Assembly (NCBI GenBank): GCA_017554145.1
Contig: JAFZIZ010000009.1
Location: 16,121 to 80,120 of the forward strand
Reading direction: 5' to 3'
Source: Prevotella sp.
GTDB lineage: Bacteria; Bacteroidota; Bacteroidia; Bacteroidales; Bacteroidaceae
Length of the DNA: 64,000 nucleotides
Positions within the stretch are counted from its first letter, which is position 1, and every line of letters begins with the position of its first letter. The notes under the pieces are model-generated. The model saw only the letters and a program-made list of their open reading frames with translations, did no database searches and was not told the DNA's origin. The position numbers and the translations under genes were made by a program. Below are positions 1 to 63,744 of the stretch, in pieces.

Positions 1-28
1 ACGATTATAGGTTAAAGGTTAACGGTTA
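1..28. repeat. Heptamer array, 4 units
   Basis: Four consecutive 7-bp units (ACGATTA, TAGGTTA, AAGGTTA, ACGGTTA). This is the first of about fifteen 7-bp-period arrays in the window. It runs into the 68-bp direct repeat that starts at 24 and may continue left of the window edge. Confidence 0.8.
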
Positions 29-91
29 TAGAAAATAAGGAAGAAAAGATGGGCTGACCTTTGGTCGGCTCATTATTTTTTAGTAACTTTG
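24..91. repeat. 68-bp direct repeat, copy A
   Basis: Bases 24-91 match 2607-2674 at 64 of 68 positions by eye, in the same orientation. Both copies end in the promoter element TAACTTTG. They bracket the Bro-N and DUF4143 genes. The repeat includes the short palindrome GACCTTTGGTC in copy A. Confidence 0.85.
84..91 (+). promoter_or_regulatory. Promoter -7 element (TAACTTTG)
   Basis: Matches the Bacteroidetes TAnnTTTG consensus 23 bp before the Bro-N start codon. It sits at the right end of direct-repeat copy A. Confidence 0.7.
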
Positions 92-981: not shown

Positions 982-1050
982 ACAATGAAGTGAGGTAGCA
1001 GAAGAATAATATAAGAGGATGAGCCTACCCGTAAGGATAGAGGGGATATA

Positions 1051-1071
1051 ATGGTTAATGGTTAAAGATAA
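1051..1071. repeat. Heptamer array, 3 units
   Basis: ATGGTTA, ATGGTTA, AAGATAA. Same 7-bp period and A/T-rich unit type as the array at 7139-7208. Confidence 0.7.
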
Positions 1072-1073
1072 AA

Positions 1074-1134
1074 CCACAAACAACCGAACAAAATTGCCAC
1101 AAACAACCGAACAAAATTGCCACAAACAACCGAA
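1074..1134. repeat. 23-bp tandem repeat, 2.65 copies
   Basis: Two identical 23-bp units at 1074-1096 and 1097-1119, each starting CCACAAACAACCGAACAAAA, followed by a 15-bp partial third unit (1120-1134). There are no spacers, so it is a plain tandem repeat and not a CRISPR array. Its minus-strand translation gives a repetitive peptide (NFVRLFV-type), which I regard as fortuitous. Confidence 0.9.
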
Positions 1135-3926: not shown

Positions 3927-5159
3927 ATGGAGACAAAAGAGACGAAACATATACGAATCAGTGACTACAACTATCCCTTGCCTGACGAGAGGATTGCCAA
4001 ATATCCTGTGGCTGAGCGCGACCACTCGAAACTGCTGATATACAATAAAGGTGAAGTGGGGGAGGACATGTTCTATAACCTGCCTCAACACTTGCCTGCC
4101 AACAGCCTGATGGTGTTCAACAATACCAAGGTGATACAGGCTCGTCTGCATTTCCGTAAAGATACTGGTGCCTTGATAGAGATATTCCTCTTGGAACCAG
4201 CAGAGCCTGCTGACTATGAACAGATGTTCCAGACACGCAAGAAGTGTTCGTGGCTCTGTCTGGTGGGCAACCTGAAGAAATGGAAAGAAGGAGCGCTGGA
4301 GAGAGAGTTTACAGTTGACAGTTTACAGTTGACAGTTAGGGCAACGAGGCGTGGGGAACATGGTACCAGTCAGTGGATAGACTTTGAATGGGACGGGGAT
4401 GTGTCGTTTGCTGATATCATCGACGTGATGGGTGAGTTACCGATACCGCCCTATCTCAATCGTGAGACGCAGGAGAGTGACAAGACCACTTATCAGACCG
4501 TCTATTCCAAGATAAAGGGTAGTGTGGCGGCTCCAACGGCTGGTCTTCATTTCACGGAGCGCGTGCTTGCCGATATCGACGCACGTGGGATAGAACGCGA
4601 GGAACTGACATTGCACGTAGGTGCTGGTACGTTCCGTCCTGTGAAGAGTGAGGAGATAGAGGGTCACGAGATGCATACCGAATATATCGCTGTGCGTCGT
4701 CATACCTTGGAGCGCCTGATTGCCTATGATGGTCAGGCGATTGCTGTAGGTACAACGAGTGTGCGAACGCTGGAGAGTCTTTACTATATGGGTCTGAAGG
4801 TGCTGGAGAATCCAGATGCCACAGAGGAGGAACTGCACGTGAACCAATGGGAACCGTATGATGGAAGATGGAAGAAGGAAGAAGTAAGAAGTAAGAGAGA
4901 GGTGCTGCAGGCATTGCTCGACTGGATGGACAGACGCGAACTCTCTGTGCTTCACTCCTCTACGCAGATTATCATAGCCCCTGGCTACGACTATAAGATT
5001 GTGAAGATGCTGATTACGAATTTCCATCAGCCTCAGAGTACATTGCTATTGCTGGTCAGTGCCTTTGTGAAAGGCGACTGGCATCGTATATACGACTATG
5101 CCCTGGCTCATGATTTCCGATTCTTGAGTTATGGGGATTCCTCGCTGCTGATACCGTAA
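3927..5159 (+). CDS. queA: tRNA preQ1(34) S-adenosylmethionine ribosyltransferase-isomerase
   Basis: QueA transfers and isomerises the ribosyl part of S-adenosylmethionine onto preQ1 at the tRNA wobble position, the penultimate queuosine step. Family signatures are clear: RISDYNYPLPDERIAKYPV at the start, LMVFNNTKVIQARL, then SKIKGSVAAPTAGLHF and the C-terminal LITNFHQPQSTLL. The frame is open back to 3882, but that start lies inside a terminator, so the ATG at 3927 (410 residues) is chosen. This is longer than E. coli QueA (about 356). Two inserted segments, residues about 128-137 and 312-325, are encoded by heptamer repeats (4308-4335, 4860-4901). NadE follows after another array. Confidence 0.95.
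   Translation: METKETKHIRISDYNYPLPDERIAKYPVAERDHSKLLIYNKGEVGEDMFYNLPQHLPANSLMVFNNTKVIQARLHFRKDTGALIEIFLLEPAEPADYEQMFQTRKKCSWLCLVGNLKKWKEGALEREFTVDSLQLTVRATRRGEHGTSQWIDFEWDGDVSFADIIDVMGELPIPPYLNRETQESDKTTYQTVYSKIKGSVAAPTAGLHFTERVLADIDARGIEREELTLHVGAGTFRPVKSEEIEGHEMHTEYIAVRRHTLERLIAYDGQAIAVGTTSVRTLESLYYMGLKVLENPDATEEELHVNQWEPYDGRWKKEEVRSKREVLQALLDWMDRRELSVLHSSTQIIIAPGYDYKIVKMLITNFHQPQSTLLLLVSAFVKGDWHRIYDYALAHDFRFLSYGDSSLLIP
4308..4335. repeat. Heptamer array inside queA, 4 units
   Basis: TTTACAG, TTGACAG, TTTACAG, TTGACAG: two perfect 14-bp dimers. They encode FTVDSLQLT in frame within queA, with no disruption of the frame. Confidence 0.9.
4860..4901. repeat. Purine-rich heptamer array inside queA, 6 units
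   Basis: GATGGAA twice, GAAGGAA, GAAGTAA twice, GAGAGAG. The array encodes a charged stretch DGRWKKEEVRSKRE between the conserved central and C-terminal parts of QueA. Confidence 0.85.
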
Positions 5160-5160
5160 G

Positions 5161-5209
5161 TGAAGAATGAAGAATGAAGAAATAAGAATTAAGAGTGAAA
5201 GGTTAAAGA
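5161..5209. repeat. Heptamer array between queA and nadE, 7 units
   Basis: TGAAGAA three times, ATAAGAA, TTAAGAG, TGAAAGG, TTAAAGA. The array starts one base after the queA stop and fills nearly the whole gap to nadE. Confidence 0.85.
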
Positions 5210-5216
5210 CAAAGAT

Positions 5217-7139
5217 ATGAAACATGGATTAATCACCGTGGCAGCCGCAGTGCCTGCCGTCAGAGTTGCCGATGTCGAGTATAACGTGCTCGAAATAGAA
5301 AAACTCATAGCTAATGCGGAAGGACAAGGAGTAGAGATTATCTGCTTCCCTGAACTTGCTATTACGGGTTATAGTTGTCAGGACCTCTTCAAAGGTCAAC
5401 TGCTGCTCACGATGGCAGAGGAAGGACTGATGACGCTTCTTGACTTCACTCGTAAGCTGAACATCATCTGTGTGGTAGGAATGCCAGTACAGGCAGGAGG
5501 TATCCTGCTCAACTGTGCTGCCGTTATCCAGAGCGGGTGTCTGTTAGGATTGGTTCCAAAGACGTATCTGCCTAACTATAACGAGTTCTACGAGAAACGA
5601 TGGTTTGCCTCGGCACAAGACTTGAATCCTACGGAAATCAACCTCGCAGGTTCCAAGATACTGTTATCCGCAGAGCCGAAAATCTTTGAGACGGTGGATG
5701 GCGTGAAGTTCGGTGTGGAGATATGTGAGGATGTATGGGCACCTGTTCCTCCCAGCAATCTGCTGACAATGGCTGGCGCAGATATTATCCTTAACTGTTC
5801 GGCAAGTGACGACCTGATCGGTAAGCATCGTTATCTGTGTTCACTCATCGCCCAACAGAGTGCCCGTACCATCAGTGGTTATGTGTATTCTTCCTGTGGT
5901 TTCGGAGAGTCGACTCAGGATGTGGTCTATGGTGGTAATGCGATGATCTTCGAGAATGGTCGATTGTTGGTAGAAGGGGAGCGTTACTCCTTCCAGCCTC
6001 AATTGAAGATATCTCAGATAGATGTTGAACGTTTGCGGACAGAGCGTCATTCTAATTCGACCTTTATCAATGCCCAGCGCCAGGCCACAGCACAGATCAT
6101 CAACTGTAAGGCTGTTGAACTTCCTGAATTCCAGATGTTGCGTCCTGTCAATCCACATCCCTTTATTCCTAAAGATGAAGAGATGCAGGATACTTGTGAG
6201 GAAATCCTCAATATCCAGACATCAGGACTTGCCAAGCGTCTGACACATACCAACTGTGAACATGTGGTGATTGGTATTAGTGGTGGTCTCGATTCTACAC
6301 TTGCCTTGCTGGTATGTGTACGTACCTTTGATAAACTGGGTTTGAGTCGTAAAGGAATCGTGGGCGTGACGATGCCTGGTTTTGGAACGACAGACCGTAC
6401 TCATGATAATGCCACTACGCTTATGCAGACGCTGAATATCTCGCAGATGGAGATATCTATCGCCAAGTCGGTTACCCAGCATTTTGAGGATATCGGTCAT
6501 GATATGAAGAAACATGATACGACCTATGAGAATGCTCAGGCTCGTGAACGGACGCAGATACTGATGGATCTTGCCAACCAACTCAATGCGATGGTGGTGG
6601 GTACGGGTGACCTGTCTGAACTGGCTCTTGGTTGGGCAACCTACAACGGTGACCACATGTCGATGTATGGTGTGAATGCGGGTGTTCCCAAAACACTCAT
6701 TCAGTATCTTATCCGATACATGGCAGGATTGCAACAGTTCAAGGCTCAGAAAGAGACATTGATTGACATCATCGATACACCTATCTCACCAGAACTGACA
6801 CCTGCTGACTCACAAGGTAAGATCAAACAAAAGACGGAAGACTTAGTGGGTCCCTATGAGTTACACGACTTCTTCCTCTATTATTTCCTGCGTTTCGGAT
6901 TCCGTCCAGCAAAGATATTCTTCCTGGCGCGTCATGCATTTGGGAAGAAATACGATAAGGAGACGATTAAGAAATGGCTGACGACCTTCTGTCGCCGCTT
7001 CTTCACCCAACAGTTCAAGCGCTCTTGTCTGCCTGACGGTCCGAAAGTGGGTAGTGTCAGTCTCTCTCCACGTGGTGACTGGCGTATGCCGAGTGATGCT
7101 TCTTATGCACTTTGGTTGAAAGAGTGCGAAGCACTATAA
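5217..7139 (+). CDS. nadE: Glutamine-dependent NAD+ synthetase
   Basis: 640 residues, the size of the two-domain glutamine-using enzyme. It amidates nicotinic acid adenine dinucleotide to NAD in the cytosol. The N-terminal nitrilase-type amidase (about 1-290) shows the glutamate of FPELAITGY (E46), the lysine of LVPKTYLPNYNEFYE and the cysteine of EICEDVWAP. The C-terminal synthetase domain has the ATP pyrophosphatase loop GISGGLDST (about residues 352-360) and GTGDLSELALGWATYNGDHM. It lies between queA and dnaB, separated from both by heptamer arrays; no separate promoter is obvious. Its stop codon overlaps the first base of the array at 7139. Confidence 0.97.
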   Translation: MKHGLITVAAAVPAVRVADVEYNVLEIEKLIANAEGQGVEIICFPELAITGYSCQDLFKGQLLLTMAEEGLMTLLDFTRKLNIICVVGMPVQAGGILLNCAAVIQSGCLLGLVPKTYLPNYNEFYEKRWFASAQDLNPTEINLAGSKILLSAEPKIFETVDGVKFGVEICEDVWAPVPPSNLLTMAGADIILNCSASDDLIGKHRYLCSLIAQQSARTISGYVYSSCGFGESTQDVVYGGNAMIFENGRLLVEGERYSFQPQLKISQIDVERLRTERHSNSTFINAQRQATAQIINCKAVELPEFQMLRPVNPHPFIPKDEEMQDTCEEILNIQTSGLAKRLTHTNCEHVVIGISGGLDSTLALLVCVRTFDKLGLSRKGIVGVTMPGFGTTDRTHDNATTLMQTLNISQMEISIAKSVTQHFEDIGHDMKKHDTTYENAQARERTQILMDLANQLNAMVVGTGDLSELALGWATYNGDHMSMYGVNAGVPKTLIQYLIRYMAGLQQFKAQKETLIDIIDTPISPELTPADSQGKIKQKTEDLVGPYELHDFFLYYFLRFGFRPAKIFFLARHAFGKKYDKETIKKWLTTFCRRFFTQQFKRSCLPDGPKVGSVSLSPRGDWRMPSDASYALWLKECEAL

Positions 7140-7208
7140 TGGTTAATGGTTAAAGATTAAAGGTTAAAGATTAAAGGTTAACGGTTAAAGTTTAATGGTT
7201 AAAGGTTA
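7139..7208. repeat. Heptamer array between nadE and dnaB, 10 units
   Basis: Ten gap-free units with consensus ANGNTTA (ATGGTTA, ATGGTTA, AAGATTA, AAGGTTA, AAGATTA, AAGGTTA, ACGGTTA, AAGTTTA, ATGGTTA, AAGGTTA). This is the longest and cleanest array in the window. The first unit begins at the last base of the nadE stop codon. Confidence 0.95.
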
Positions 7209-7223
7209 AAGAGTTTAAGATTA

Positions 7224-20437: not shown

Positions 20438-21106
20438 ATGAAATTAAAATTAATGTCTCTGTTACTTTGCGTTGGTATGCTCTTCGCATGTAACAACACC
20501 CAGAAGGGTGCAGGTATCGGTGCCGGTGGCGGTGCTTTATTAGGTGGTATAATCGGTGCTATTGCTGGTAATACGGCAGTAGGTGTCGCAGTAGGTGGTG
20601 CCGTAGGTGCCGGTGCTGGTGCAATCATCGGTAAGAAGATGGATAAAGCTAAGGCACAGGCTGAGCAGGTTCAGAATGCTCAGGTAGAGACAGTGAAGGA
20701 TACGAACGGCCTTGATGCTGTGAAGGTGACTTTCGACTCTGGTATTCTTTTCGCTACAGGTAAGGCTGATTTGAGCGCTAGTGCTAAAAATTCACTTGCA
20801 GAGTTTGCCCGTGTGCTGAATTCCAATACCGACTGTGATGTCGCTATTATCGGACATACTGACAACACAGGTAGCGACGCTATCAACCAGCCGTTGTCTG
20901 TTAATCGTGCCAACAGCGTATCGAACTATCTGCGTTCTTGTGGTGTTCAGGGCAAGCAGATTAAGAGCGTTGAGGGTCAGGGTTCAACCAATCCCGTTGC
21001 CGATAACTCTACTGCTGCTGGTCGTCAGCAGAACCGCCGTGTGGAGGTTTACATGTATGCCAGCCAGGAGATGATTCAGAAGGCTGAGGCAGGTACGCTC
21101 CAGTAA
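20438..21106 (+). CDS. OmpA-like lipoprotein with glycine zipper
   Basis: 222 residues. A lipoprotein signal peptide ends in LFAC with the lipidated cysteine at residue 18. Residues about 23-66 are a glycine-zipper segment ([21 protein letters not shown]) that may insert in or pack against the membrane. Residues about 95-210 are an OmpA C-terminal domain that binds peptidoglycan: [41 protein letters not shown] and NRRVEVYM. It probably tethers the outer membrane to the wall. Its stop overlaps the mtgA start by 1 bp, so the two are co-transcribed. Confidence 0.9.
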
Positions 21107-21798
21107 TGAAGGCTTTCTGGAAGAAAATTAAAAGATTTCTTTTGTGGATAGTAGTTGCGTTTTTCGCTTCTACTATCCTTTCTGTTATTGTGTTACGTTG
21201 GGTGCCTGTATTCTTCACACCGTTGATGTTTATCCGTGTGGCACAACAGGTATCTGATGGTAAAGAAATGACATTGCATCATCATTGGGTGCCGTTAGAA
21301 GAGATATCTCCATCATTACCGTTGGCAGTGATGGGAAGTGAGGATGCTCGTTTTCTGGAACATCACGGTTTCGATTATAAGGCAATAGAGCATGCTGCCA
21401 TTCGTAATATGAAACATCCCGAAAAACGGAAGTTAGGAGCATCTACCATTTCCCAGCAGACGGCAAAGAATGTATTTTTATGGCCAGGTCGCTCATGGAC
21501 TCGTAAGGGTTTCGAGGTCTATTTCACCGCATTGATAGAACTTTTCTGGTCGAAGCAGCGCATCATGGAAGTCTATCTGAATTCCATTGAGATGGGAGAT
21601 GGAATCTATGGTGCCAGTGCTGTGGCGGAATGGCATTTCCATAAGGAGGCTTCCCAGTTGACGAAGGCTGAATGTGCCCTGATAGCCGCCACACTTCCTA
21701 ATCCTCTTCGATTTAATTCCGCTAAGCCCAGTGGCTACGTATTAAAACGACAACAGCGCATCCTTCATGAGATGCGCTATGTCAAACCTTTAGAATAA
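21106..21798 (+). CDS. mtgA: Monofunctional peptidoglycan glycosyltransferase
   Basis: 230 residues, one GT51 domain. An N-terminal membrane anchor (about 10-32) precedes the catalytic motif [20 protein letters not shown], with the glutamate of SEDARF as the expected catalytic base. [49 protein letters not shown] and [11 protein letters not shown]-type motifs follow. It polymerises lipid II into glycan strands at the inner membrane. The TAATG junction with the lipoprotein gene indicates translational coupling. No transpeptidase domain follows. Confidence 0.95.
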
Positions 21799-21825
21799 AG
21801 TTTAAAGGTTATAGTTTAAAGGTTA
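21798..21825. repeat. Heptamer array between mtgA and pyrF, 4 units
   Basis: AAGTTTA, AAGGTTA, TAGTTTA, AAGGTTA. It starts at the last base of the mtgA stop codon. On the minus strand it encodes the last residues (YNL) and stop of PyrF. Confidence 0.85.
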
Positions 21826-22673
21826 TAGAGTTTAAGCTCTTCTGCCATCTGTTCCTGCAACTCCTTTGCTTTCTGTGCTGCCACTTCGGCAAAATCCTCT
21901 CCGTTGCTGGCATAGATGATACCGCGACTGGAGTTTACGAGCAAGCCGCAATCTTTTGTCATACCGTATTTGCAGACTTCCTGAAGACTGCCACCCTGTG
22001 CACCGACACCAGGTACGAGTAGGAAGTGGTTGGGGGCTATTTTGCGGATGTCCTCAAACATCTGACCTTGTGTGGCACCTACCACATACATCATGTTCTC
22101 GTCGTTGCCCCATTGTTGTGACATCTTCAGTACTTTCTCAAAAAGTCGTTCCCCCTTGTTGTCCTCCGTCAACTGGAAGTCGTGACTTCCCTTGTTGCTC
22201 GTCAGAGCCAACAGAATCACCCATTTTCCCTCATACCCGAGGAAAGGCGTTACGGAATCCTCGCCCATATAGGGGGCTACGGTCAGTGCATCGACATCAT
22301 ACTCCTCAAAGAAGGTCTTGGCATACATCTTCGAGGTGTTACCAATATCCCCACGCTTGGCGTCCGCAATGATGAAGTGGTTTGGGTATTCCTCTTTCAA
22401 ATAGTCGATGGTTGCCTCGAAAGCCATCATACCGTCCACTCCATAAGCCTCATAGAAAGCAAGGTTGGGTTTGTAGGCGACACAGTAGGGTGCTGTGGCA
22501 TCGATGATGAGTGCATTAAACTCACAAAGAGCACGAAAGATATAATCTTCATCGTCCTTTGCCTTCGCCTCGTCAATGATGCACTGCGGTATCTTGTTGA
22601 TATCCGTATCGAGACCGACGCAGAGGAAACTTTGCTTCTCCTTGATTTGTTGAATAAGTTCTTGTTTAGTCAT
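21816..22673 (-). CDS. pyrF: Orotidine 5'-phosphate decarboxylase
   Basis: 285 residues, the longer type-2 form. It decarboxylates OMP to UMP in the last step of pyrimidine synthesis. The catalytic stretch [19 protein letters not shown] is present, with lysine and aspartate of the DxKxxD type, as are [15 protein letters not shown] near the start and [10 protein letters not shown] for phosphate binding. The last residues (LKLYNL) run into a heptamer repeat and look like a replaced C terminus. It is the last gene of the phoH-led minus-strand run. pyrB and pyrI lie elsewhere in this window. Confidence 0.96.
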
Positions 22674-24991: not shown

Positions 24992-25019
24992 TTAATTATC
25001 AATTGTTAATTATCAATTA
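24992..25019. repeat. Heptamer array between lemA and purM, 4 units
   Basis: TTAATTA, TCAATTG, TTAATTA, TCAATTA: two 14-bp dimers. The first three units are exactly the 21-bp intergenic gap; the fourth contains the lemA stop codon. Confidence 0.85.
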
Positions 25020-25603
25020 AACTGAACTTTCGGTGCTTTCTCAGCTCCAGCCTCTGCTTCGAACTTCGTCATCTGGCTGAAGCCGAAGATACCGGCGAAA
25101 ATATTCTTGGGGAACGAACGAATCTCGACGTTATACTTCTGAACAGCAGCATTATAACTGTTGCGAGCCTCGTTGATACGATTCTCTGTACCCTCCAACT
25201 GCACTTGCAGATCGCGGAAGTTCTCGTTAGCCTTTAGGTCTGGATAGTTCTCTTGAATGGCAATCAGACGACCGAGAGCACTACCGAGCTCGCCCTGTGC
25301 TTGCTGGAAATCCTTTAGTTTCTCGGGAGTCATGTTCTCTGGGTCGAGTGTGATCTGGGTAGCCTTTGAACGGGCAGCAACCACGTCTTCGAGTGTCTGT
25401 TTCTCGTGAGTAGCATAACCCTTCACAGTCTCCACGAGGTTGGGAATCAGGTCGGCACGACGCTGATAGGTAGATTGTACATTGGCCAGAGCGGTAGTAG
25501 CACTTTCCTGTACACTGACCATTGAATTGTAGGCACTTGCAGCCCATGCGCCAATAACGACGATGACTACGATAATTGCGATAAGTCCTTTACTGAGTTT
25601 CAT
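25013..25603 (-). CDS. lemA: LemA family protein
   Basis: 196 residues. One N-terminal membrane segment (about 6-26) is followed by a helical cytosolic or periplasmic domain with the LemA signature YNSMVSVQESATTALANVQ then YQRRADLIPNLVETVKGYA, and later a conserved NIFAGIFGF near the C terminus. The biochemical role is not established. The gene next upstream encodes a TPM-domain protein; a lemA-TPM pair is a common bacterial arrangement and suggests they act together at the membrane. Confidence 0.93.
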   Translation of the reverse strand: MKLSKGLIAIIVVIVVIGAWAASAYNSMVSVQESATTALANVQSTYQRRADLIPNLVETVKGYATHEKQTLEDVVAARSKATQITLDPENMTPEKLKDFQQAQGELGSALGRLIAIQENYPDLKANENFRDLQVQLEGTENRINEARNSYNAAVQKYNVEIRSFPKNIFAGIFGFSQMTKFEAEAGAEKAPKVQFN

Positions 25604-52370: not shown

Positions 52371-54035
52371 CTATTGATTATTTTCTCTTTTGACCACGAA
52401 GAAGGCGACGCGATGAGTGTCGCCCTTTTTGTTGAGGGTGCGTAACTCGTAGACACCGTTGGGAATTTCCGAGAGATAAATGTCTGCGGCAAAGGGTTTT
52501 GTATTGAGGATGTTGCCCTGCATCGAATAGATGGCAAAGTAGTTTGCCTGTGGTATCTCATTGAAGTGGGGGATATGCAAGGTGTAGCCGTCTGTCTGGA
52601 GGAGCTCTGTAGCTGATAATTGGTAATTGACAATTGATGACTGATTATTAGAGGTGATGGGGGCACTCTCTTTGCCGTAGCGGTTGACGGCTGTGACGGC
52701 ATAGTAGAGGGTTGGCTCATCGACAGAGCGGTGAAGGGAGATATGCTTCTGCATCTGTCGGGTGGCGATGAGATTACGTCCGTCTTGAATATCGACATGA
52801 GGCGTCATTGACGCATAGACATTATAGGTGAGATAGTCACCGTCGCTGGTATCCACAGCTCCGTCCCAGCTGAGGTTATCGCCGTTACTGGTACGCTCTA
52901 CATTGAGTGTTGTCAGCTTCGTAGGGGCAGGTTGATTGTTCTGCATCGCAGGAACGGTGGCAGGGTAGGTGTCGAAGTCACAAACGAAGTCATAGAGTCC
53001 CTTGGTATTGTCGGTAAGGAAACGGCTACGGAAATAGCAGTGGCCGAGTTGCATCTGACGGGCAACATTCATCTGGCGCTTGATGGCATCAAGGTTCCAA
53101 TTGCCCTCACTGCGTATCAGTCGGTAGATACCCAGTCCTGCAGCAATCTCTCGTCCGTAGCGGTGTTCACTCCAGTCGGCAGCGAAGGGATAGAAGTGCT
53201 TGCCGTCGTAGTACATCATCGGATAGAGTTGGTCCATCAGTCCGTCGTGCAACCATCCCTGTGCATCTTGACATACCTTATTATAAGCATTCCAACCGCC
53301 ACTTGGAAAACGTGTGAGGTCGTCGAACTTACCTAAGGGCGAACAACTCATCTTCACCCAGGGCTTGAGGTTTCTGACGCGTTGATGGATGGTACGGACG
53401 ATACGTGTGATGTTTTCACGACCCTGTGTACGGTTTAAGGCTCCTGTCCACTGTTCGGGATAACGGATATAGTCGAGATGGATACCATCGATGTCATAGC
53501 GACTGGTAATCTCCTCACAGATATTGGCGATATAGTCAGCTGTCTGACGGTTCTCAGGATTCAAGAAGGCATCCACACCTATACGTTTCATCAGGTCGGG
53601 ACGACGCTGACGAAGACTCTTGGCTCCATAGCTCTCCCATTTTCCCGTTGGTATGGTGACGACCCACGCATGGAGTTCCATACCTCGTTTGTGGGCTTCT
53701 TCGATGGCAAATTGCAGGGGGTCGTAGTTGGGCGCCTTGCCGAAGGTACCGCTGATGCAACCATCCCAAGGCTCATAGCGAGAAGGGTAGGTTACTGTGC
53801 CACGGATGCGAGCCTGAAAGAGGATGGTATTCACATTGGCTCGTTTCAACTTGTCGAGGATATTACGCAGTTCCTGTTTCTGTCGTTGCTCCACAGAGGC
53901 AGAAGCCCCTTTCGTACTGGGCCAGTCGAGACCTTCTAACGTGGTGAGCCATACGGCACGGAGTTCTTGTTTGGGCTGTGCACCCAATGTCAACAGGAAT
54001 GCTAAGAATAGTATGATAAGGGTATATCGTTTCAT
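52371..54035 (-). CDS. GHL10 family glycosyl hydrolase (DUF187) with T9SS-like tail
   Basis: 554 residues from ATG 54035; the frame extends to 54059 inside the promoter. Signal peptide about 1-19. The TIM-barrel GHL10 domain (about 22-350) shows ELRAVWLTTLEGLDWPS, VNTILFQARIRGTVTYPSRYEPW, GMELHAWVVTIP, DIDGIHLDYIRYPEQW with the likely catalytic aspartates, and QLYPMMYYDG. Relatives include E. coli DigH, which cuts stripped peptidoglycan. A fibronectin-like segment (about 370-470) follows, then a C-terminal module (IYSMQGNIL ... LSEIPNGVYEL) like a T9SS sorting domain. The junction is encoded by a heptamer array. Confidence 0.85.
   Translation of the reverse strand: MKRYTLIILFLAFLLTLGAQPKQELRAVWLTTLEGLDWPSTKGASASVEQRQKQELRNILDKLKRANVNTILFQARIRGTVTYPSRYEPWDGCISGTFGKAPNYDPLQFAIEEAHKRGMELHAWVVTIPTGKWESYGAKSLRQRRPDLMKRIGVDAFLNPENRQTADYIANICEEITSRYDIDGIHLDYIRYPEQWTGALNRTQGRENITRIVRTIHQRVRNLKPWVKMSCSPLGKFDDLTRFPSGGWNAYNKVCQDAQGWLHDGLMDQLYPMMYYDGKHFYPFAADWSEHRYGREIAAGLGIYRLIRSEGNWNLDAIKRQMNVARQMQLGHCYFRSRFLTDNTKGLYDFVCDFDTYPATVPAMQNNQPAPTKLTTLNVERTSNGDNLSWDGAVDTSDGDYLTYNVYASMTPHVDIQDGRNLIATRQMQKHISLHRSVDEPTLYYAVTAVNRYGKESAPITSNNQSSIVNYQLSATELLQTDGYTLHIPHFNEIPQANYFAIYSMQGNILNTKPFAADIYLSEIPNGVYELRTLNKKGDTHRVAFFVVKRENNQ
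52615..52649. repeat. Heptamer array inside the GHL10 gene, 5 units
   Basis: GATAATT, GGTAATT, GACAATT, GATGACT, GATTATT. Read on the minus strand it encodes NNQSSIVNYQLS, a linker between the fibronectin-like part and the C-terminal module. Confidence 0.9.
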
Positions 54036-54056
54036 CTTGTCTTTAATTTTTGCTTG

Positions 54057-54064
54057 CAAAGGTA
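54057..54064 (-). promoter_or_regulatory. GHL10 gene promoter (TACCTTTG)
   Basis: Minus strand, 22 bp before the chosen start; it overlaps the upstream ATG at 54059 and so rules it out. Confidence 0.7.
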
Positions 54065-54072
54065 CGAAAAAA

Positions 54073-54100
54073 TTGATAATTGATAATTGATAATTGATAA
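54073..54100. repeat. Heptamer array TTGATAA x4
   Basis: Four perfect TTGATAA units between the divergent GHL10 and cstA promoters. They occupy the -33 region of both promoters. Confidence 0.95.
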
Positions 54101-54108
54101 TTATTTCT

Positions 54109-54145: not shown

Positions 54146-55615
54146 ATGATATCATTTACATTGAGCTTAGTGGCTCTCGTCTTAGGCTATCTGCTGTATG
54201 GACGCTTTGTAGAGCGTGTTTTCGGCCCCGATAATCGTGAGACACCCGCCGTCCTGAAGGCGGATGGTATCGACTATATCGTGATGCCGAATTGGAAGAT
54301 TTTCATGATTCAGTTTCTGAACATTGCAGGCACAGGACCTATCTTCGGTGCTATCATGGGTGCAAAGTTTGGACCAGTGGCTTATCTGTGGATTGTCTTC
54401 GGCTGTATCTTTGCTGGAGCCACCCACGATTATCTGAGCGGTATGCTGTCGATGCGCCATGATGGTGCAGGACTGCCGCAACTCATCGGAAAGTATCTGG
54501 GAAAGACCACAAAAGCCGTGATGCTGGTGTTCACCGTTCTGTTGTTGATAATGGTGGGAACAGTGTTTGTCTATTCTCCTGCTGAGATTCTTCACTCCAT
54601 CGGTGGTGAGACCATGATGTGGGTAGTGATTATCTTCTGCTATTATATCATTGCTACGATGCTGCCTATCGATAAGATTATCGGTAAGGTATATCCACTG
54701 TTTGCCTTCTCGTTGCTGTTTATGGCAGGTGCGCTGATGGTATGGTTGTTCATCCATTGGCCTACAGTTCCAGAGCTGTGGACACATCTTTATAATATGG
54801 GTGCTGCTACGGAGCCCGACAAATGGACGGATGCTATCTTCCCAGCATTGTTTATCACCGTTGCCTGTGGTGCTATCTCTGGTTTCCACGCAACACAGAG
54901 TCCGCTGATGGCTCGTTGCGTGAGAAGTGAGCACCAGGGACGCCCCATCTTCTATGGTGCGATGATTACTGAGGGTATTGTTGCCCTTATCTGGGCTACT
55001 GTCTCAGCATGGTTCTTCTATGGTGATCCTGCTCCTGGTTATGAGTTGATCGCTGCTGCAACAGCTGGTTTCCATACTTCGGCACCTGCCGTGGTGAACC
55101 TCGTATGTAATGATTGGCTGGGTGTGGCTGGTGCTATCCTGGCGATGCTGGGTGTCGTTGCTGCTCCTATCACTTCTGGTGATACAGCCTTCCGTTCGGG
55201 CAGACTCATTGTCGCTGAGTGGTTGAAACTCGACCAGCGCCCCATTGTGAAGCGTCTGATGATTTGTCTCCCGATGTTCTGTGTTTCTATCGCGATGCTC
55301 GTTTGGCAGATCAGTAATCCCGATGGTTTCAACACCATCTGGCAGTATTTCGGATTCAGCAATCAGGCTTTGAGCGTATTCACTCTGTGGACTATCACCG
55401 TTTATCTGGTGCGCAAGAAGAAGTGCTTCTGGATCACGCTGATTCCTGCCTTGTTTATGACCACTGTTTGCTCAACATGGTTCTTCGTATCGAAACAGGC
55501 GCTCCATCTGCCAGGAATGATAGGCTATGGCTTGGGTATTGTATGTCTCGGCATCGCCATCATGTGGTTTGCCTTCTGGTTAATCAAGTATCAAAAGAAA
55601 TCATTAAATCAATAA
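54146..55615 (+). CDS. cstA: CstA family peptide/pyruvate transporter
   Basis: 489 residues, shorter than E. coli CstA (701) because the C-terminal part is missing, as in many anaerobes. About 12-13 membrane segments. The family core IAGTGPIFGAIMGAKFGPVAYLWIVFGCIFAGATHDYLSG and AITSGDTAFRS-like APITSGDTAFRSGRLI are present. CstA is induced by carbon starvation and takes up peptides or pyruvate; which one applies here is unknown. The beta-barrel gene follows after 5 bp. Confidence 0.92.
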   Translation: MISFTLSLVALVLGYLLYGRFVERVFGPDNRETPAVLKADGIDYIVMPNWKIFMIQFLNIAGTGPIFGAIMGAKFGPVAYLWIVFGCIFAGATHDYLSGMLSMRHDGAGLPQLIGKYLGKTTKAVMLVFTVLLLIMVGTVFVYSPAEILHSIGGETMMWVVIIFCYYIIATMLPIDKIIGKVYPLFAFSLLFMAGALMVWLFIHWPTVPELWTHLYNMGAATEPDKWTDAIFPALFITVACGAISGFHATQSPLMARCVRSEHQGRPIFYGAMITEGIVALIWATVSAWFFYGDPAPGYELIAAATAGFHTSAPAVVNLVCNDWLGVAGAILAMLGVVAAPITSGDTAFRSGRLIVAEWLKLDQRPIVKRLMICLPMFCVSIAMLVWQISNPDGFNTIWQYFGFSNQALSVFTLWTITVYLVRKKKCFWITLIPALFMTTVCSTWFFVSKQALHLPGMIGYGLGIVCLGIAIMWFAFWLIKYQKKSLNQ

Positions 55616-55620
55616 TCCTT

Positions 55621-56118
55621 ATGAAAAAGAAAATCGTATTATTTGTTGCAGCCATGATGGTGTCATTGGCTTCTCATGCACAGTTTGAAGCAGGTAAGGC
55701 CTATCTGGGTGCTTCTCTCTCTAGTATTGATATCAGCAGTCAGGCGAAGCAGTTCCATATCGGACTGAATGCCAAGGTGGGTTATCTTTTTGCCGACAAC
55801 CTGATGGCTACGGCACAAGTAGGGTATGACCATTTGGAGGATGCCAACAGTCTGACGCTGGGTGCTGGTGCTCGTTACTACATCATTCAGAACGGACTCT
55901 ATTTGGGTGCCAGTCTGAAATACAAGCATGCTGAGGAGTATAACGACTTCCTGCCTGGTGTGCAGCTGGGTTATGCCTTCTTTATCAGTCGTACAGTGAC
56001 CATTGAACCAGAGCTGTATATCGACTTCTCTACGAAGAAATTCGAGAACTCTGCTTTCGGTCTTGGCGTCGGCATTGGTGTCTATCTGTTCAAGGACCAG
56101 TACAAGTTGAAGAAGTAA
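55621..56118 (+). CDS. Small outer-membrane beta-barrel protein
   Basis: 165 residues from ATG 55621. A longer frame to 55387 exists but lies inside cstA in another frame and has no signal peptide. The real start MKKKIVLFVAAMMVSLASHAQ is a perfect signal peptide. The rest alternates polar and hydrophobic residues in about eight strands (YLGASLSSIDISSQAKQFHIGLNAKVGYLF, LGAGARYYIIQNGLYLGASLKY, FGLGVGIGVYLF) and fits the OmpW/Opacity-like barrel class. No ligand can be suggested. Read with cstA. Confidence 0.85.
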   Translation: MKKKIVLFVAAMMVSLASHAQFEAGKAYLGASLSSIDISSQAKQFHIGLNAKVGYLFADNLMATAQVGYDHLEDANSLTLGAGARYYIIQNGLYLGASLKYKHAEEYNDFLPGVQLGYAFFISRTVTIEPELYIDFSTKKFENSAFGLGVGIGVYLFKDQYKLKK

Positions 56119-56143
56119 GAGGTGAGAAGTAAGAATTAAGAGA
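56116..56143. repeat. Heptamer array before nadC, 4 units
   Basis: TAAGAGG, TGAGAAG, TAAGAAT, TAAGAGA. The first unit starts with the TAA stop codon of the beta-barrel gene. Confidence 0.75.
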
Positions 56144-56151
56144 AAAGGCTT

Positions 56152-57000
56152 ATGTTAAGTGTAGAAGAACTTGTCGACCGCCTGATAGACCTCTCGTTCG
56201 CAGAGGATATTGGCGATGGTGACCATACCACCCTGTGTTGTATTCCTGAGGATGCGATGGGAAAGTCGCACCTGCTCATTAAGGAAGACGGTATTCTGGC
56301 AGGTGTGGAGATTGCCAAAGAGGTGTTCCGTCGCTTCGACCCTGAGATGAAGGTGGAAGTGCTGATGCAGGACGGTGCGAAAGTGAAGAAGGGCGATATC
56401 GCCATGATAGTGACAGGTAAGGTACGGTCGCTGTTACAGACGGAGCGCCTGATGCTGAATATCATGCAGCGTATGAGTGGTATCGCCACGATGACAAACC
56501 GTTATGTGGAGCGACTGAAAGGTACCCATACGCGTGTGCTGGATACTCGTAAGACAACCCCTGGTATGCGTATGCTCGAGAAGCAGGCTGTCAAGATTGG
56601 CGGAGGTGTGAACCATCGTATCGGACTGTTTGATATGATTCTCTTGAAAGACAATCATGTTGACTTCGCTGGTGGTATAGTGAATGCTATCGACCGCTGT
56701 CATAAATACTTGGAAGAAAAAGGATTACACCTGAAGATTGAAATAGAGGTTCGCTCTTTCGACGAGCTTCAGCAGGTGTTGGATCATGGAGGTGTAGATC
56801 GTATCATGCTCGACAATTTCTCTGTTCCTGACACGAAGAAAGCCGTCGACCTGATTGCTCATCGCTATGAGACAGAGTCGAGTGGTGGCATCACGTTCGA
56901 TACCATTCGCGACTATGCAGAGCAGGGCGTGGACTTCATCTCTGTTGGTGCGTTGACGCACTCTGTAAAAGGACTTGACATGAGTTTCAAAGCATGCTAA
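56152..57000 (+). CDS. nadC: Nicotinate-nucleotide pyrophosphorylase (carboxylating)
   Basis: 282 residues. It converts quinolinate and PRPP to nicotinate mononucleotide in de novo NAD synthesis. AEDIGDGDHTTLCCI, LLQTERLMLNIMQRMSGIATMT, HTRVLDTRKTTPGMRMLEK, KIGGGVNHRIGLFDMILLKDNH and the C-terminal VDFISVGALTHSVKGLDMSF are diagnostic. nadE lies at 5.2 kb; nadA and nadB are not in the window. It overlaps the M23 gene by 7 bp. Confidence 0.96.
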   Translation: MLSVEELVDRLIDLSFAEDIGDGDHTTLCCIPEDAMGKSHLLIKEDGILAGVEIAKEVFRRFDPEMKVEVLMQDGAKVKKGDIAMIVTGKVRSLLQTERLMLNIMQRMSGIATMTNRYVERLKGTHTRVLDTRKTTPGMRMLEKQAVKIGGGVNHRIGLFDMILLKDNHVDFAGGIVNAIDRCHKYLEEKGLHLKIEIEVRSFDELQQVLDHGGVDRIMLDNFSVPDTKKAVDLIAHRYETESSGGITFDTIRDYAEQGVDFISVGALTHSVKGLDMSFKAC

Positions 57001-58394
57001 GGGAGCTGTTAGCTATTAGCTGTTGGCTGTTGGCTTCTGGTATGAATGCCAGTGTGACTTACCACTCGCCAGTGGATTATCAGATTACGCTGGCGGGTAA
57101 TTTCGGTGAGCCACGTCCGAACCATTTCCATGGAGGAATAGATGTCAAGACCGATAATGTGGAGGGAAAACACATCTATTCAATCGGCGATGGATATGTG
57201 AGCCGTCTGACAGTAGGACTGAATGGCTTCGGCAATGCTGTTTATGTGACGCATCCAGAGGGATATACCAGCATATATTGTCATCTGAAACGCTTTGCAC
57301 CTAAATTGGAAAAGGTAGTGAAGCGTACAGGACAACGCGATGAACAGATAGATTTGCATTTCACACCCCTTGATTTCCCTGTTTCGCAAGGACAACTGAT
57401 AGCCCTGAGTGGGAATACAGGTCATAGCACAGGTCCTCATCTGCATCTGGAGATTCACGATGCCCGTACATGGGATATGATGGACCCGTTGGACTTCCTC
57501 GCAGCCTTTGTCTGCGACTCTGTTCCACCACAGGCTCATAGCTTTATGGCTTGTCCTGTAGAGGGCGAGGGTGTGTTTAACGGAGGTAGCAGCAAACAGA
57601 CCTTCGGCTTTGGCGAACAGACGATGGATGCCCGTTTCCGTTTCTCCATGCGACTCGACCATGAGTTCACAGCTTGGGGAAAGGTAGGCTTTGCTCTTTG
57701 GGCAGACGACTATATGCAGGGCGTCTATAACCATTATGGTATTCGTGAGACCATCCTGTTGGTAGACGGTCAAGAGATGTTCCGTTCGAATGTGAGTCGT
57801 ATTCCTGTGAATAGCACCCGTCAGGTGAACTCATGGGGTGATTATGACCACTGGCAGCATCATAAGACATGGTATTTGCGCTCGTATATTCCCAAGGGAG
57901 TGACACTGCCCATCCTGCAAGCTGGTGAGAACAGGGGTATTGTAGATTTCAATGAGGAGCGCCCCTATCAGATGGTGTATGTTCTCCGTGACTTCGTGGG
58001 TAACGAGGCGCGTTATGAGTTTACAGTGCGAGGACAACGCTCAGCCATTCCTGCTGCGCCCGAAAAGCGATATAATGTACGTTACGACCGTCTCTCACTC
58101 ATCTCCCTGCCAGGTATGCAGCTGACGATTCCTGCAGGAAAGGTGGAAGAGGGTTTGTGGATAGAACCCAAAGTGGAGCAGGGGAGTATTTCGCCCCGTT
58201 ATACCTTTGCCCAGCAGACGTGTCCGCTGTTTGGATGGGTGGAACTGAGTATCGCCGTTCCTCATGGTGTGAACCCCTCCAGTCTCTATATCGATGGTGG
58301 TGGACGAGATATGGGAGGTGACTACCAAGACGGTTGGATGACGACGCGTATCCGAGACTTAGGTGTTCCATATGAGTTAAGAGTTAAAAATTAA
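56994..58394 (+). CDS. Secreted M23 family metallopeptidase
   Basis: 466 residues; ATG overlaps the nadC end. The signal peptide core (ELLAISCWLLASG, residues 4-16) is encoded by a heptamer array, with cleavage expected after MNA (about residue 19). The LytM/M23 domain (about 24-175) has the zinc ligands of PNHFHGGIDVKT (H46, D50) and the HLHLEIH block near residue 150. It should cut peptidoglycan cross-bridges, or act as an EnvC-like activator if inactive; the ligands look intact. The C-terminal 290 residues are beta-rich and not recognised. The protein ends inside another heptamer array. Confidence 0.85.
   Translation: MLRELLAISCWLLASGMNASVTYHSPVDYQITLAGNFGEPRPNHFHGGIDVKTDNVEGKHIYSIGDGYVSRLTVGLNGFGNAVYVTHPEGYTSIYCHLKRFAPKLEKVVKRTGQRDEQIDLHFTPLDFPVSQGQLIALSGNTGHSTGPHLHLEIHDARTWDMMDPLDFLAAFVCDSVPPQAHSFMACPVEGEGVFNGGSSKQTFGFGEQTMDARFRFSMRLDHEFTAWGKVGFALWADDYMQGVYNHYGIRETILLVDGQEMFRSNVSRIPVNSTRQVNSWGDYDHWQHHKTWYLRSYIPKGVTLPILQAGENRGIVDFNEERPYQMVYVLRDFVGNEARYEFTVRGQRSAIPAAPEKRYNVRYDRLSLISLPGMQLTIPAGKVEEGLWIEPKVEQGSISPRYTFAQQTCPLFGWVELSIAVPHGVNPSSLYIDGGGRDMGGDYQDGWMTTRIRDLGVPYELRVKN
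57004..57038. repeat. Heptamer array encoding the M23 signal peptide, 5 units
   Basis: AGCTGTT, AGCTATT, AGCTGTT, GGCTGTT, GGCTTCT, without gaps. It is translated as LLAISCWLLAS, the hydrophobic region that a signal peptide requires. Confidence 0.9.
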
Positions 58395-58401
58395 GAGTTA
58401 T
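58374..58401. repeat. Heptamer array between M23 and C69 genes, 4 units
   Basis: GAGTTAA, GAGTTAA, AAATTAA, GAGTTAT. It encodes the last residues of the M23 protein (ELRVKN) and supplies its TAA stop. Confidence 0.8.
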
Positions 58402-61713: not shown

Positions 61714-61734
61714 AAGTTTAACGGTTAACGGTTA
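61714..61734. repeat. Heptamer array, 3 units
   Basis: AAGTTTA, ACGGTTA, ACGGTTA. On the minus strand it supplies the end (YNR) and stop of the GLUG protein. Confidence 0.75.
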
Positions 61735-63650
61735 TAGACAACTTTTTTTCCATTCACAATATAGAGTCCCTTCGTCGGATTGGTCACCTTACGACCGTTG
61801 AGATCGAAGAAAGACTTCAATTCTTCAATTCTTGAATTTTTCAGTTTTATCGAGGTCGTTTCCTCGTCTATTCCGAAGAAGTTCGAGCTATCGCCTCCAC
61901 TAATCAGCAGGAACGCCTTGCGGGCAGCCATCGTGGTACCCGTGTACTTATGGAAGCCGAAGTGTTCTTCAGTACCAACGGTGGTCTTACCCAGCACATA
62001 GAGTGTACCGTCTCCCAGTGAAGATGTGGCAGTCTGAACATCCACGCCATCCAGGTCGTTCGCGGGAATCTCGAGGTCGGGATCTTCACATTTTGTCATA
62101 CTGATTTCGTCGTCCTCGCCCTTGATGATAACTGCAGTATTCTTGGGGACGTCCTTACCCAAAGAGTGCAGTTTGATGGACCCACTTTTCACCTCTGCCG
62201 TATAGGCAGTGGCATTCTCACCCTCGTCAATCAAGTAATTCGTATGGCTGCAGTAGAATGTTGTCCAGTAGTTGCCGTCAGGAGCCAGATTGGCTGAGAG
62301 ATCGAGTTCCTCTATATAGGGATAGAGCGTCTTGCCGGCCAGAGCATTGAGTTCTTCACCCGTCAGCGTGCCGCTGTAGGTGTTATTGCCGTCAGTGAAG
62401 GTCTTACTGAAAGTAGCGGTGACATCGTTGGGGGTGGGGGTGGTGAAGATGCCGGCGATGGCGATGCGGTCGGCGAGGTTGCGCCAGCTGAAGGTGTAGC
62501 TCTTGCCGGTTGCACCGAGGTTACCGCCGTTGACGGTGACGTTGCCGCCATTATAGATGAAGTTCGCTTGGGTATAGATGGCATCGGCGTTGCCGCTGCC
62601 GCTGCCAGTAGCACTGACGGTGCCGCCGTTGATGGTGATGTCGCCGGTCGCGGTAAAGAGCGCGGAGGCATAGCTTCCATTGGCGTTGGCGGTGACGTTG
62701 CCGCCGTTGATAGTGAGGGCGCTTACGGAGATGCCATCGCCAGTAATGTCTGTGGTATAGATGCTGAGGGCACCACTACCTGCGTTTTGACCATAGATGG
62801 TGAGGGTTGCGGTGCCGCTGGGTTTATTGATGCCGTAGCCGTTGATTCTGCTCTCGCTGGTTCCGACGGTCATGGTATATCCGTCGGCAAGAATCAGTGT
62901 GACGTTGCCCGTTATCGTGACGGTACTGGTATAGGTCACATCGCTGTTCACCACGTAGGTACCTGCCGCCAACGTGGTCATGGTGTTGTCGAGCGGGATG
63001 GCCTGCACGTCTTCATGTGGTGTTCCGTCGGCTTCAACATACGAGGTAGTGATCATGCGACGGGCACCGTCGCAGTCGCCAGAGCCTGTGCCGATATTGG
63101 TGGTAGCGTTGTTCACACTGCATTCAAGATAGTAGTTGTTGGTGAGGGTTCCGCCATTATTATAGCCCACGATAACACCGACGTAATTATTACCCTTTAA
63201 GGTGGCATCTTTGACGATGACATTCTTCACAACACCACCGCTACCAATATAGCCAAAAAGGCCCATATAGTCGGAAGTTGAAGTGTTGTCCGCGGTCGAC
63301 ACTCCTGCGATGGTGTGGCCATCACCATCGAAAGTACCTGTGTAAGGGTGAGAAGCAGTGCCGATGGAATGAAACCAGTCTTGACTATATTCTTCAGCTT
63401 CAGGATATTCTTTGCAAACGATGTCTTCTACTAACTTAGCACAGGCACTGGGATTGGCATTGCCTGTATAACCATCTATGCCATTGACCATGGTTACAAA
63501 GTCCTTCAGTTCTGCATAAGACCCAATTTCATACGGGTCATCAATTGTTCCCGTACCTTGCGCCCATACGTTTTGCCCCACCATCAGTGCCACCATTGTC
63601 AGCATCAGGGCGAGGACTTGGTTAAGTCTTTTGAGTTTTAGTTTCATCAT
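61725..63650 (-). CDS. Secreted GLUG-repeat surface protein with T9SS-like C terminus
   Basis: 641 residues from ATG 63650 (63647 is the next codon); the frame extends to 63758 through a promoter and a pseudogene remnant. The signal peptide ends QNVWAQ. Residues about 30-170 hold GLUG-type repeats (YMGLFGYIGSGGVVKNVIVKDATLKGNNYVGVIVGYNNGG). Residues about 200-400 are low-complexity parallel-beta repeats rich in threonine, asparagine and glycine (ALTINGGNVTANANGS, DITINGGTVSATGSGS). The end (FFDLNGRKVTNPTKGLYIV NGKKVV) is the Prevotella form of a T9SS/surface sorting tail. It is a probable adhesin or matrix protein. Confidence 0.8.
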   Translation of the reverse strand: MMKLKLKRLNQVLALMLTMVALMVGQNVWAQGTGTIDDPYEIGSYAELKDFVTMVNGIDGYTGNANPSACAKLVEDIVCKEYPEAEEYSQDWFHSIGTASHPYTGTFDGDGHTIAGVSTADNTSTSDYMGLFGYIGSGGVVKNVIVKDATLKGNNYVGVIVGYNNGGTLTNNYYLECSVNNATTNIGTGSGDCDGARRMITTSYVEADGTPHEDVQAIPLDNTMTTLAAGTYVVNSDVTYTSTVTITGNVTLILADGYTMTVGTSESRINGYGINKPSGTATLTIYGQNAGSGALSIYTTDITGDGISVSALTINGGNVTANANGSYASALFTATGDITINGGTVSATGSGSGNADAIYTQANFIYNGGNVTVNGGNLGATGKSYTFSWRNLADRIAIAGIFTTPTPNDVTATFSKTFTDGNNTYSGTLTGEELNALAGKTLYPYIEELDLSANLAPDGNYWTTFYCSHTNYLIDEGENATAYTAEVKSGSIKLHSLGKDVPKNTAVIIKGEDDEISMTKCEDPDLEIPANDLDGVDVQTATSSLGDGTLYVLGKTTVGTEEHFGFHKYTGTTMAARKAFLLISGGDSSNFFGIDEETTSIKLKNSRIEELKSFFDLNGRKVTNPTKGLYIVNGKKVVYNR

Positions 63651-63678
63651 TTTAATGGTTAGTTTTATTTTCTGCCTG

Positions 63679-63686
63679 CGAAGATA
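63679..63686 (-). promoter_or_regulatory. Promoter -7 element (TATCTTCG)
   Basis: Minus strand, 29 bp before the GLUG protein start. It supports the start at 63650 and lies downstream of the HU-like remnant. Confidence 0.55.
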
Positions 63687-63744
63687 CGAAAATTTCCTGA
63701 GACTACCAAATTTTTTAAAGTTAAATTCCCTGCCAGCGTACCAG

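What the first reader, a model, noticed from the sequence alone, without database searches (positions are those of the whole stretch)
7139..7208. A dispersed family of 7-bp-period arrays (about 15 loci) unites otherwise unrelated low-complexity spots
Seen directly: arrays at 1-28, 1051-1071, 2598-2611, 4308-4335, 4860-4901, 5161-5209, 7139-7208, 21798-21825, 24992-25019, 52615-52649, 54073-54100, 56116-56143, 57004-57038, 58374-58401 and 61714-61734. Heptamers differ between loci (ANGNTTA, TGAAGAA, TTGATAA, TTTACAG/TTGACAG, AGCTGTT) but the period is always 7. A fixed period with changing sequence points to a generating mechanism rather than copying of one element. Heptanucleotide tandem repeats (STRR) are known in filamentous cyanobacteria; I know of no description for Bacteroidales.
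Basis: partly seen in the sequence, partly recalled or inferred. Interest (0 to 1): 0.8.

Follow-up and report, generated by a model that had tools for sequence, protein, structure and literature searches.

The report
Seven-base repeat arrays in Prevotella genomes
This Prevotella chromosome is peppered with short arrays of seven-letter repeats that come, go and change their wording quickly between related species, even inside genes; repeats of this length are known in other bacteria, but the spread of one wording through a whole genome is poorly explained.

Summary
In 742 kb sampled from this genome one detector finds 127 arrays of period 7 and 0-14 for each other period from 5 to 12; in the window 12, against 1 in 20 simulations together. 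Of the 15 listed spots 14 stand out; 2598-2611 does not. Arrays lie in spacers and also inside genes (queA twice). The trait recurs in many, not all, related Prevotella genomes. It is in motion: among four species 93% identical, 8 of 10 array sites differ in presence, unit or length, at two of them in 7-base steps (+14, +21). Two features exceed plain local slippage: period-7 units, unlike periods 6, 9 and 11, mostly lack C on one strand (207 of 301, 104.5 expected), and one heptamer family can fill tens of sites in one lineage yet be absent in others. Best explanation: heptamer microsatellites resized by slippage and seeded partly by copying array DNA between loci (inferred). A known kind (heptanucleotide repeats of cyanobacteria, Xanthomonas, Beggiatoaceae, a few Bacteroidetes); a new variant in host, use of coding sites and lineage blooms. 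No function is shown.

The parts
5..28 (+). array TTAAAGG/TTAACGG, spacer upstream of ORF 115-981
1049..1065 (+). array TAATGGT, intergenic
4306..4337 (+). array AGTTTAC/AGTTGAC inside queA; encodes EFTVDSLQLTV, which aligns with a variable segment of other QueA proteins, of equal length in most of them
   Evidence: Pfam Queuosine_synth
4860..4896 (+). array GATGGAA to GAAGTAA inside queA, second variable site
5161..5194 (+). array TGAAGAA/AATTAAG between the queA stop and the nadE start (5217)
   Evidence: different or no arrays in relatives
7137..7211 (+). longest array in the window, GGTTAAN type; overlaps the nadE stop and ends 12 nt before the dnaB start (7224)
   Evidence: Pfam; relatives
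21799..21828 (+). 14-bp unit of two heptamers (AGTTTAAAGGTTAT) at the junction of convergent ORFs 21106-21798 and 21816-22673
24992..25019 (-). AATTGAT-type array with a 14-bp unit at the junction of two minus-strand ORFs (overlaps the stop of 25013-25603)
52614..52649 (+). weak array TGATAAT/TGGTAAT inside minus-strand ORF 52371-54059 (GHL10 family)
54071..54102 (+). perfect array AATTGAT, 4.6 units, between divergent ORFs
56110..56141 (+). array AAGAAGT overlapping the stop of ORF 55387-56118, upstream of the QPRTase ORF (56152)
57004..57035 (+). array AGCTGTT at the 5' end of the M23 peptidase ORF (56994-58394); encodes LLAISCWLLA, which looks like a signal-peptide core
   Evidence: translation and signal peptide by inspection
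58374..58401 (+). array GAGTTAA at the stop of the M23 ORF, upstream of the C69 peptidase ORF (58408)
61718..61734 (+). array TTAACGG at the 3' end of ORF 61725-63758 (minus)

Best explanation
These are heptanucleotide microsatellites (long simple sequence repeats) in rapid turnover. Step 1, seeding: a stretch of roughly 10-35 nt of heptamer DNA appears at a weakly constrained site (spacer, variable loop, linker, signal peptide), at least in part by copying from an array elsewhere in the genome during repair or replication (template switching); inferred. Step 2, resizing: polymerase slippage adds or removes whole 7-nt units (differences of 7, 14 and 21 nt between species are shown; the enzyme is inferred). 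Step 3, selection: in genes only frame-keeping, stop-free arrays survive, so coding arrays favour the C-rich strand and can replace earlier sequence at equal length; in spacers nearly anything is tolerated. Why 7 nt is open; others propose that it is the length of DNA held by the polymerase (known to me only as cited). No function for the cell is shown.
For: Unit-step differences at orthologous sites: 12 and 33 nt, 46 and 60 nt in G294 and G396; 20 nt in L134 and, by eye, 27 nt in L133 at the site where L128 and L138 have none. At 8 of 10 sites four 93%-identical species differ. By eye, no matching heptamer at the empty sites 2860 and 7495 and L134:8080, which asks for imported seed DNA. One family spread through a genome. 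Unrelated loci of the own genome share identical array segments of 22-30 nt. Coding filter: C-rich strand coding in 32 arrays, G-rich in 9, 18 ambiguous; at gene edges between co-directional genes G-rich is coding in 18, C-rich in 3.
Against: Seeding by copying is not seen directly: no donor-recipient pair was traced, and gain and precise loss cannot always be told apart. At several of the 10 sites the length differences are not multiples of 7 (6 and 9 nt at 7861 and 7821; 39, 42, 38, 42 nt at 14959). The unit vocabulary of six genomes is only weakly genome-specific (sharing within 0.091-0.095, between 0.049-0.095; permutations reaching the observed value 23, 49, 1, 479, 64 and 229 of 1000 for six pairs). 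Slippage alone does not predict the strand bias, strongest at period 7, nor the peak at 5 units in this genome (58 of 127 arrays against 21 with 4 and 7 with 6), which tf2-5 lacks (11, 11 and 3 arrays with 4, 5 and 6 units).
Confidence: 0.55

Rival explanations
1. Purely local slippage: each array grows from a chance near-repeat already at the site; the shared vocabulary only reflects which heptamers slip easily.
For: Length changes of 14 and 21 nt at two sites. Some orthologue pairs differ by exactly 21 nt with a short, partly similar segment at the short site, e.g. L144:9187 (32 nt) against L141 (11 nt); 11 of 872 comparisons differ by -21. Families are shared between genomes nearly as much as within.
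Against: Empty sites with no matching heptamer by eye. 137 matches of one family in one genome and none in ten others is hard to get from random local seeds. In the partial listing G142, G099 and G028 show only the AACATTG variant, while every G019 place includes AACGTTG.
Confidence: 0.22
2. A dedicated sequence-specific generator, for example a telomerase-like reverse transcriptase with a short RNA template, writes heptamer arrays into DNA.
For: Fixed period, one family per bloom, and a C-free strand as in telomeric repeats (recalled); DRT10 makes tandem repeats from an RNA template (PMC12632851, abstract and passages seen).
Against: No RVT_1 match in this array-rich genome (83.5% complete) nor in G035, while G016, with no array in 100 kb, has one; 8 of the 10 genomes have a match. 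DRT10 repeats are 9 nt. Several families coexist in each well-sampled genome. The DRT10 family itself was not searched.
Confidence: 0.07
3. Arrays are regulatory sites: binding sites for a DNA- or RNA-binding protein, for instance in translation initiation, as proposed for the TAACTGA repeats.
For: Several arrays lie just upstream of start codons (5161, 7137, 58374); edge arrays favour the G-rich strand as coding.
Against: At orthologous junctions relatives have other heptamers, other periods or nothing. Orientation in co-directional spacers is mixed, 7 against 11. 59 of 127 arrays lie inside predicted genes. The edge bias can come from stop codons supplied by the G-rich strand.
Confidence: 0.12
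4. Assembly or binning artefact.
For: The genome is a draft of 38 contigs with 5.13% estimated contamination.
Against: Arrays of the same kind in G167 (record of a named strain, not marked MAG) and in the one- and two-contig genomes G117 and G266; in frame inside Pfam-recognised genes.
Confidence: 0.01

Closest known systems
Heptanucleotide long simple sequence repeats in prokaryotes (Mrazek et al. 2007, known to me only as cited in PMC4679880 and PMC4692102)
   Same: Heptamers the most abundant class in most genomes of that survey; sporadic across lineages; polymerase slippage proposed
   Different: The survey, as cited, found multiples of three most likely inside genes; here 59 of 127 seven-base arrays lie inside predicted genes, and orthologous sites turn over within about 7% divergence
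TAACTGA direct repeats of Beggiatoaceae, cyanobacteria and five Bacteroidetes (PMC4679880, abstract and sections 3, 8, 10, 23 read)
   Same: Short heptamer arrays, mostly in spacers; intergenic differences between close Cyanothece strains mostly in 7-nt steps; one heptamer favoured in one genome
   Different: Three exact TAACTGA units absent in 100 genus genomes; many families in this genome; no general placement upstream of starts
GGGAATC / GGGGA(T/C)T repeats of Xanthomonas and Nostoc (PMC4692102, passages seen)
   Same: Degenerate heptamers, one G-rich strand, length and sequence vary between close species
   Different: GGG is under-represented in the units here (11 against 35 in shuffled units), so G-quadruplexes are unlikely to be the point (inference); coding sites are used often
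Cyanobacterial STRR heptamers (recalled; no primary paper read)
   Same: Tandem degenerate heptamers in spacers
   Different: Other phylum; strand bias and genome-wide blooms not compared
DRT10 telomerase-like reverse transcriptase (PMC12632851, abstract and passages seen)
   Same: Makes tandem-repeat DNA in bacteria
   Different: 9-nt repeats; no RVT_1 match in this genome

Membership tests
Long simple sequence repeat (microsatellite) of heptanucleotides | Tandem units of 5-11 nt in runs longer than chance | tested here: met
Long simple sequence repeat (microsatellite) of heptanucleotides | Copy number changes in whole units between close relatives | tested here: met
   +14 and +21 nt between G294 and G396, one unit between L134 and L133 by eye; but other sites differ by lengths that are not multiples of 7; species, not strains, were compared
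Long simple sequence repeat (microsatellite) of heptanucleotides | Generated by polymerase slippage | not testable with these tools
   needs mutation accumulation or a slippage assay
TAACTGA repeat family | Unit TAACTGA | tested here: not met
   three exact units in 0 of 100 genus genomes
TAACTGA repeat family | Forward orientation just upstream of start codons | tested here: not met
   strand orientation in co-directional spacers 7 against 11; 59 of 127 arrays inside predicted genes
Phase-variation contingency locus | Repeat number switches reading frame or promoter of a gene | tested here: inconclusive
   the coding arrays seen keep an open frame; promoter effects not testable; host genes include housekeeping ones
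Transposable element or MITE | Constant sequence with defined ends and target duplication | tested here: not met
   no shared 9-mer in 25-nt flanks for 322 of 325 pairs; no consistent duplication, by eye, at the few empty sites seen
DRT10-like templated repeat synthesis | Reverse transcriptase present | tested here: inconclusive
   RVT_1 0 in G000 (83.5% complete) and 0 in G035 (94% complete); the DRT10 family itself was not searched

The most novel reading that the evidence does not exclude
These Prevotella have an ongoing process that spreads heptamer arrays through the chromosome in lineage-specific dialects: one family with its own variant letters reaches tens of unrelated sites within a few per cent of divergence, overwrites coding loops without changing their length, and favours units with one C-free strand. 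That would be a dispersal mechanism for ultra-short DNA without transposase or reverse transcriptase, carried by repair or replication itself.
Probability: 0.3. Interest if true: 0.85.

Novelty: new variant of a known kind. Interest (0 to 1): 0.6.

Why it matters
If right, weakly constrained DNA in these bacteria, including segments of proteins such as QueA, RsgA, LpxB and RelA/SpoT, is repeatedly rewritten by short repeats, giving a source of protein and spacer diversity. Related genomes with many and with few arrays make an old question, why bacterial microsatellites favour seven bases, directly testable. It also warns that low-complexity protein segments in Prevotella may be repeat scars rather than functional motifs.

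Tried and rejected
A genome-specific vocabulary as a strong rule: only weakly supported. An association with gene starts: 1 of 59 arrays inside genes lies within the first 30 codons, 4.1 expected; my simple gene caller may misplace starts. A replication-strand rule: array orientation did not follow GC skew of the 20-kb stretches by eye, not tested formally. A fixed 32-bp element: the length peak is clear in this genome and perhaps in G333 and G266, not in tf2-5, G350 or G117. An RT generator: no RVT_1 in this genome. Known RNA family: none at gathering score in the window. The 31- and 33-nt identical array pairs have similar flanks (paralogous or duplicated sequence) and were not counted as sharing between unrelated loci. 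G249/G294 contig extension gave no new synteny.

Errors and dropped rows. In some searches the label G117_communis, and (used by 52) the pairing of L171 with G117, are my error: contig lengths differ (3,454,626,722), so G117 is unnamed; the effect is that L171 and the G117 stretches were not compared with each other. In one search the G037 and G055 rows show the same few runs at nearly every lag, which looks like stretches of N, and were dropped. 'Inside' counts rest on a simple codon-usage gene caller, which put 57004 outside its gene.

Full report
What is there. The window lies in a 2.8-Mb draft genome (38 contigs, 83.5% complete). Its closest relatives among 398 genomes of its genus are at 89% NadE identity; named records of the genus at that level are Prevotella, mostly from ruminants by their titles (which may leave out this genome itself). 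Tandem Repeats Finder lists 43 rows in the window, 20 of them with period 7. Exact-match runs of 10 or more occur 8 times at lag 7 and 7 times at lag 14 against 0.1 and 0.0 in shuffles; no other lag from 2 to 30 exceeds 1. I sampled 742,111 bases of the genome, window included: 81 runs at lag 7, 63 at lag 14, 47 at lag 21, and 127 arrays of period 7 against 0, 9, 14, 10, 2, 14 and 10 for periods 5, 6, 8, 9, 10, 11 and 12.

Where the arrays lie. By a simple gene caller (90% coding), 40 of 127 arrays are in spacers, 28 overlap a gene edge and 59 are inside predicted genes, so spacers are strongly over-represented but genes are not spared. Ten of the 59 host ORFs were given to Pfam and all ten matched a family, among them threonine synthase, TsaE, RsgA, LpxB, MurB, CbiD and RelA/SpoT. 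In the window, queA holds two arrays, a GHL10 protein a weak one, and the 5' end of an M23 peptidase is encoded by one. Inside genes the coding strand is C-rich in 32, G-rich in 9 and ambiguous in 18; at edges between co-directional genes it is G-rich in 18 and C-rich in 3; in co-directional spacers 7 and 11. This fits filtering by stop codons, which the G-rich strand tends to carry.

How widespread. Arrays per 100 kb: own 17.1, G167 (tf2-5) 13.7, G333 11.0, G350 8.0, G266 6.5, G117 5.5, G035 2.9, G016 0.0, from samples of 742, 395, 200, 200, 200, 200, 105 and 100 kb. In 80 named loci around nadE (1.45 Mb) period 7 gives 171 arrays; periods 5, 6, 8, 9, 10, 11 and 12 give 3, 19, 58, 67, 3, 33 and 36. 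The pattern RGTGRGAGGTGRGAGGTGRGAGG matches in 51 of 200 genus genomes (not in this one; reversed control in 15) and in 1 of 198 genomes drawn from the order. So the trait is widespread in the genus yet uneven among related species.

How it changes. At one QueA segment 39 of 58 distinct sequences have the same length (78 nt), yet 16 of 58 carry strongly 7-periodic DNA (at least 16 of 21 lag-7 matches in the best stretch), with different heptamers; lag-7 identity over all 58 is 0.341 against 0.219-0.285 at lags 4-6 and 8-12. Other equal-length cases: L065:12084, 60 nt against 60 nt of non-repetitive sequence in L137; L067:7022, 29 nt against 29 nt, with GGTGAGN units here and GTTGAGN in tf2-5. 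Elsewhere arrays are insertions: over 872 array-orthologue comparisons (114 of 340 arrays; not independent) the commonest length difference is 0 (180), with further peaks at -3 (38), -6 (37), -33 (34), +3 (30) and +6 (25), and -21 in 11.

Four close species. A 16.9-kb alignment of G294, G249, G258 and G396 (pairwise 92.5-93.7%) has 10 array sites. Two are shared by all four. At 8 of 10 at least one species lacks the array or has other sequence. Site 2860: 33 nt in G396, 12 nt in G294, and no matching heptamer in G249 and G258. Site 16310: 60 and 46 nt against 13. Site 2165: 32 nt in all four but a CTCTCAC array in two, an AATTGTC-like one in G258 and a palindrome in G249. At sites 7821, 7861 and 14959 the lengths differ by 9, 6 and 1-4 nt, not by sevens. 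At L134:8080 a 20-nt AACGTTG array interrupts a site intact in L128 and L138, and L133 has a longer copy there.

Lineage blooms. AACRTTG x3 matches 152 times in G249, 137 in G396, 33 in G294 and 22 in G258 (overlapping matches counted), 28 and 27 in G059 and G143, 1-3 in four others, and 0 in ten including this genome; reversed control 0-1. Across the genus 54 of 200 genomes have a match, up to 108 in one, control in 2. Twenty stretches of G396, chosen from the matches, hold 26 arrays of this family, 24-76 nt long; 19 of 26 have no open frame through 120 nt on either side; 3 of 325 pairs share a flank 9-mer. The listing for G142, G099 and G028 shows only the AACATTG variant, that for G019 always includes AACGTTG (partial listings). 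GGTTAAN x3, a family of this genome, matches 12 times here, 12 in G189, 1-7 in twelve others and 0 in six of 20. Such blooms suggest copying within a genome, or a sequence-specific generator; they do not fit independent chance seeds well. Against a simple reading, family sharing within six sampled genomes is only slightly above sharing between them, and not at all for the pair own-G350.

Composition. Oriented by G content, 243 array units hold 3.5% C. Of 301 period-7 units with two or more G or C, 207 have them all on one strand, 104.5 expected; period 6: 13 of 53 (13.8), 8: 44 of 82 (30.4), 9: 14 of 113 (17.9), 11: 10 of 77 (10.1), 12: 17 of 87 (6.7). So the bias is strongest at period 7, weaker at 8 and 12, absent at 6, 9 and 11. 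I have no tested explanation; less hairpin formation by C-free strands is one possibility.

Explanation and status. Shown: period, location, turnover, unit steps at some sites, strand bias, blooms. Inferred: slippage as the resizing step, template copying as the seeding step. Not supported: a reverse transcriptase (no RVT_1 in this genome or G035, though this genome is incomplete), a constant regulatory motif, a mobile element with fixed ends, the TAACTGA family. Literature seen: PMC4679880 (abstract and sections 3, 8, 10, 23), PMC12632851 (abstract and passages), PMC4692102 and PMC12699852 (passages). PMC12699852 notes a subset of 6-9 nt repeats highly enriched in prokaryotic phyla and a high repeat density in Bacteroidota, consistent with this case. 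Mrazek 2007 was not read; its slippage hypothesis is taken from papers that cite it. On rechecking I mended several statements (sharing of array segments, lengths, the range for tf2-5); none of them required a change of odds.

Noticed in passing
L257 region aligned with L261-L263 (sites 1668, 2165, 14959): Palindromic inserts (e.g. CGGGGACAGTCCCC, GTTCAGCGGGGAACGCTGAAC) take the place of heptamer arrays at the same sites in sister species; the L128 queA holds a GGGGACGGTTCC palindrome too.
   Followed up: partly
L297 and L306 (G396); also the L138 insert at the nadE junction and event 2374: A dispersed element containing TTGCAACGCCACACT recurs, in L297 and L306 directly beside AACRTTG arrays.
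   Followed up: no
L133:4470-4569 and 7085-7187, L150:7208-7303: N-terminal regions that look like signal peptides have a basic part encoded by one heptamer array and a hydrophobic part encoded by its near reverse complement 36-38 nt further on.
   Followed up: partly
window 1074-1134: A 23-bp tandem repeat (CCACAAACAACCGAACAAAATTG, 2.7 copies); separately, lag 22 is raised in this genome (14 runs) and in G035 (8 runs).
   Followed up: no
L003 downstream of nadE; orthologues in L119 and L122: Sister species carry 9-bp CACTATAGT-type repeats at the junction where this genome has the 75-bp heptamer array.
   Followed up: no
window 1-90 and 2598-2675: Near-duplicate spacer sequence (aggaagaaaagatggg.tgacctttgg...cattattttttagtaactttg) occurs upstream of two genes.
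   Followed up: no
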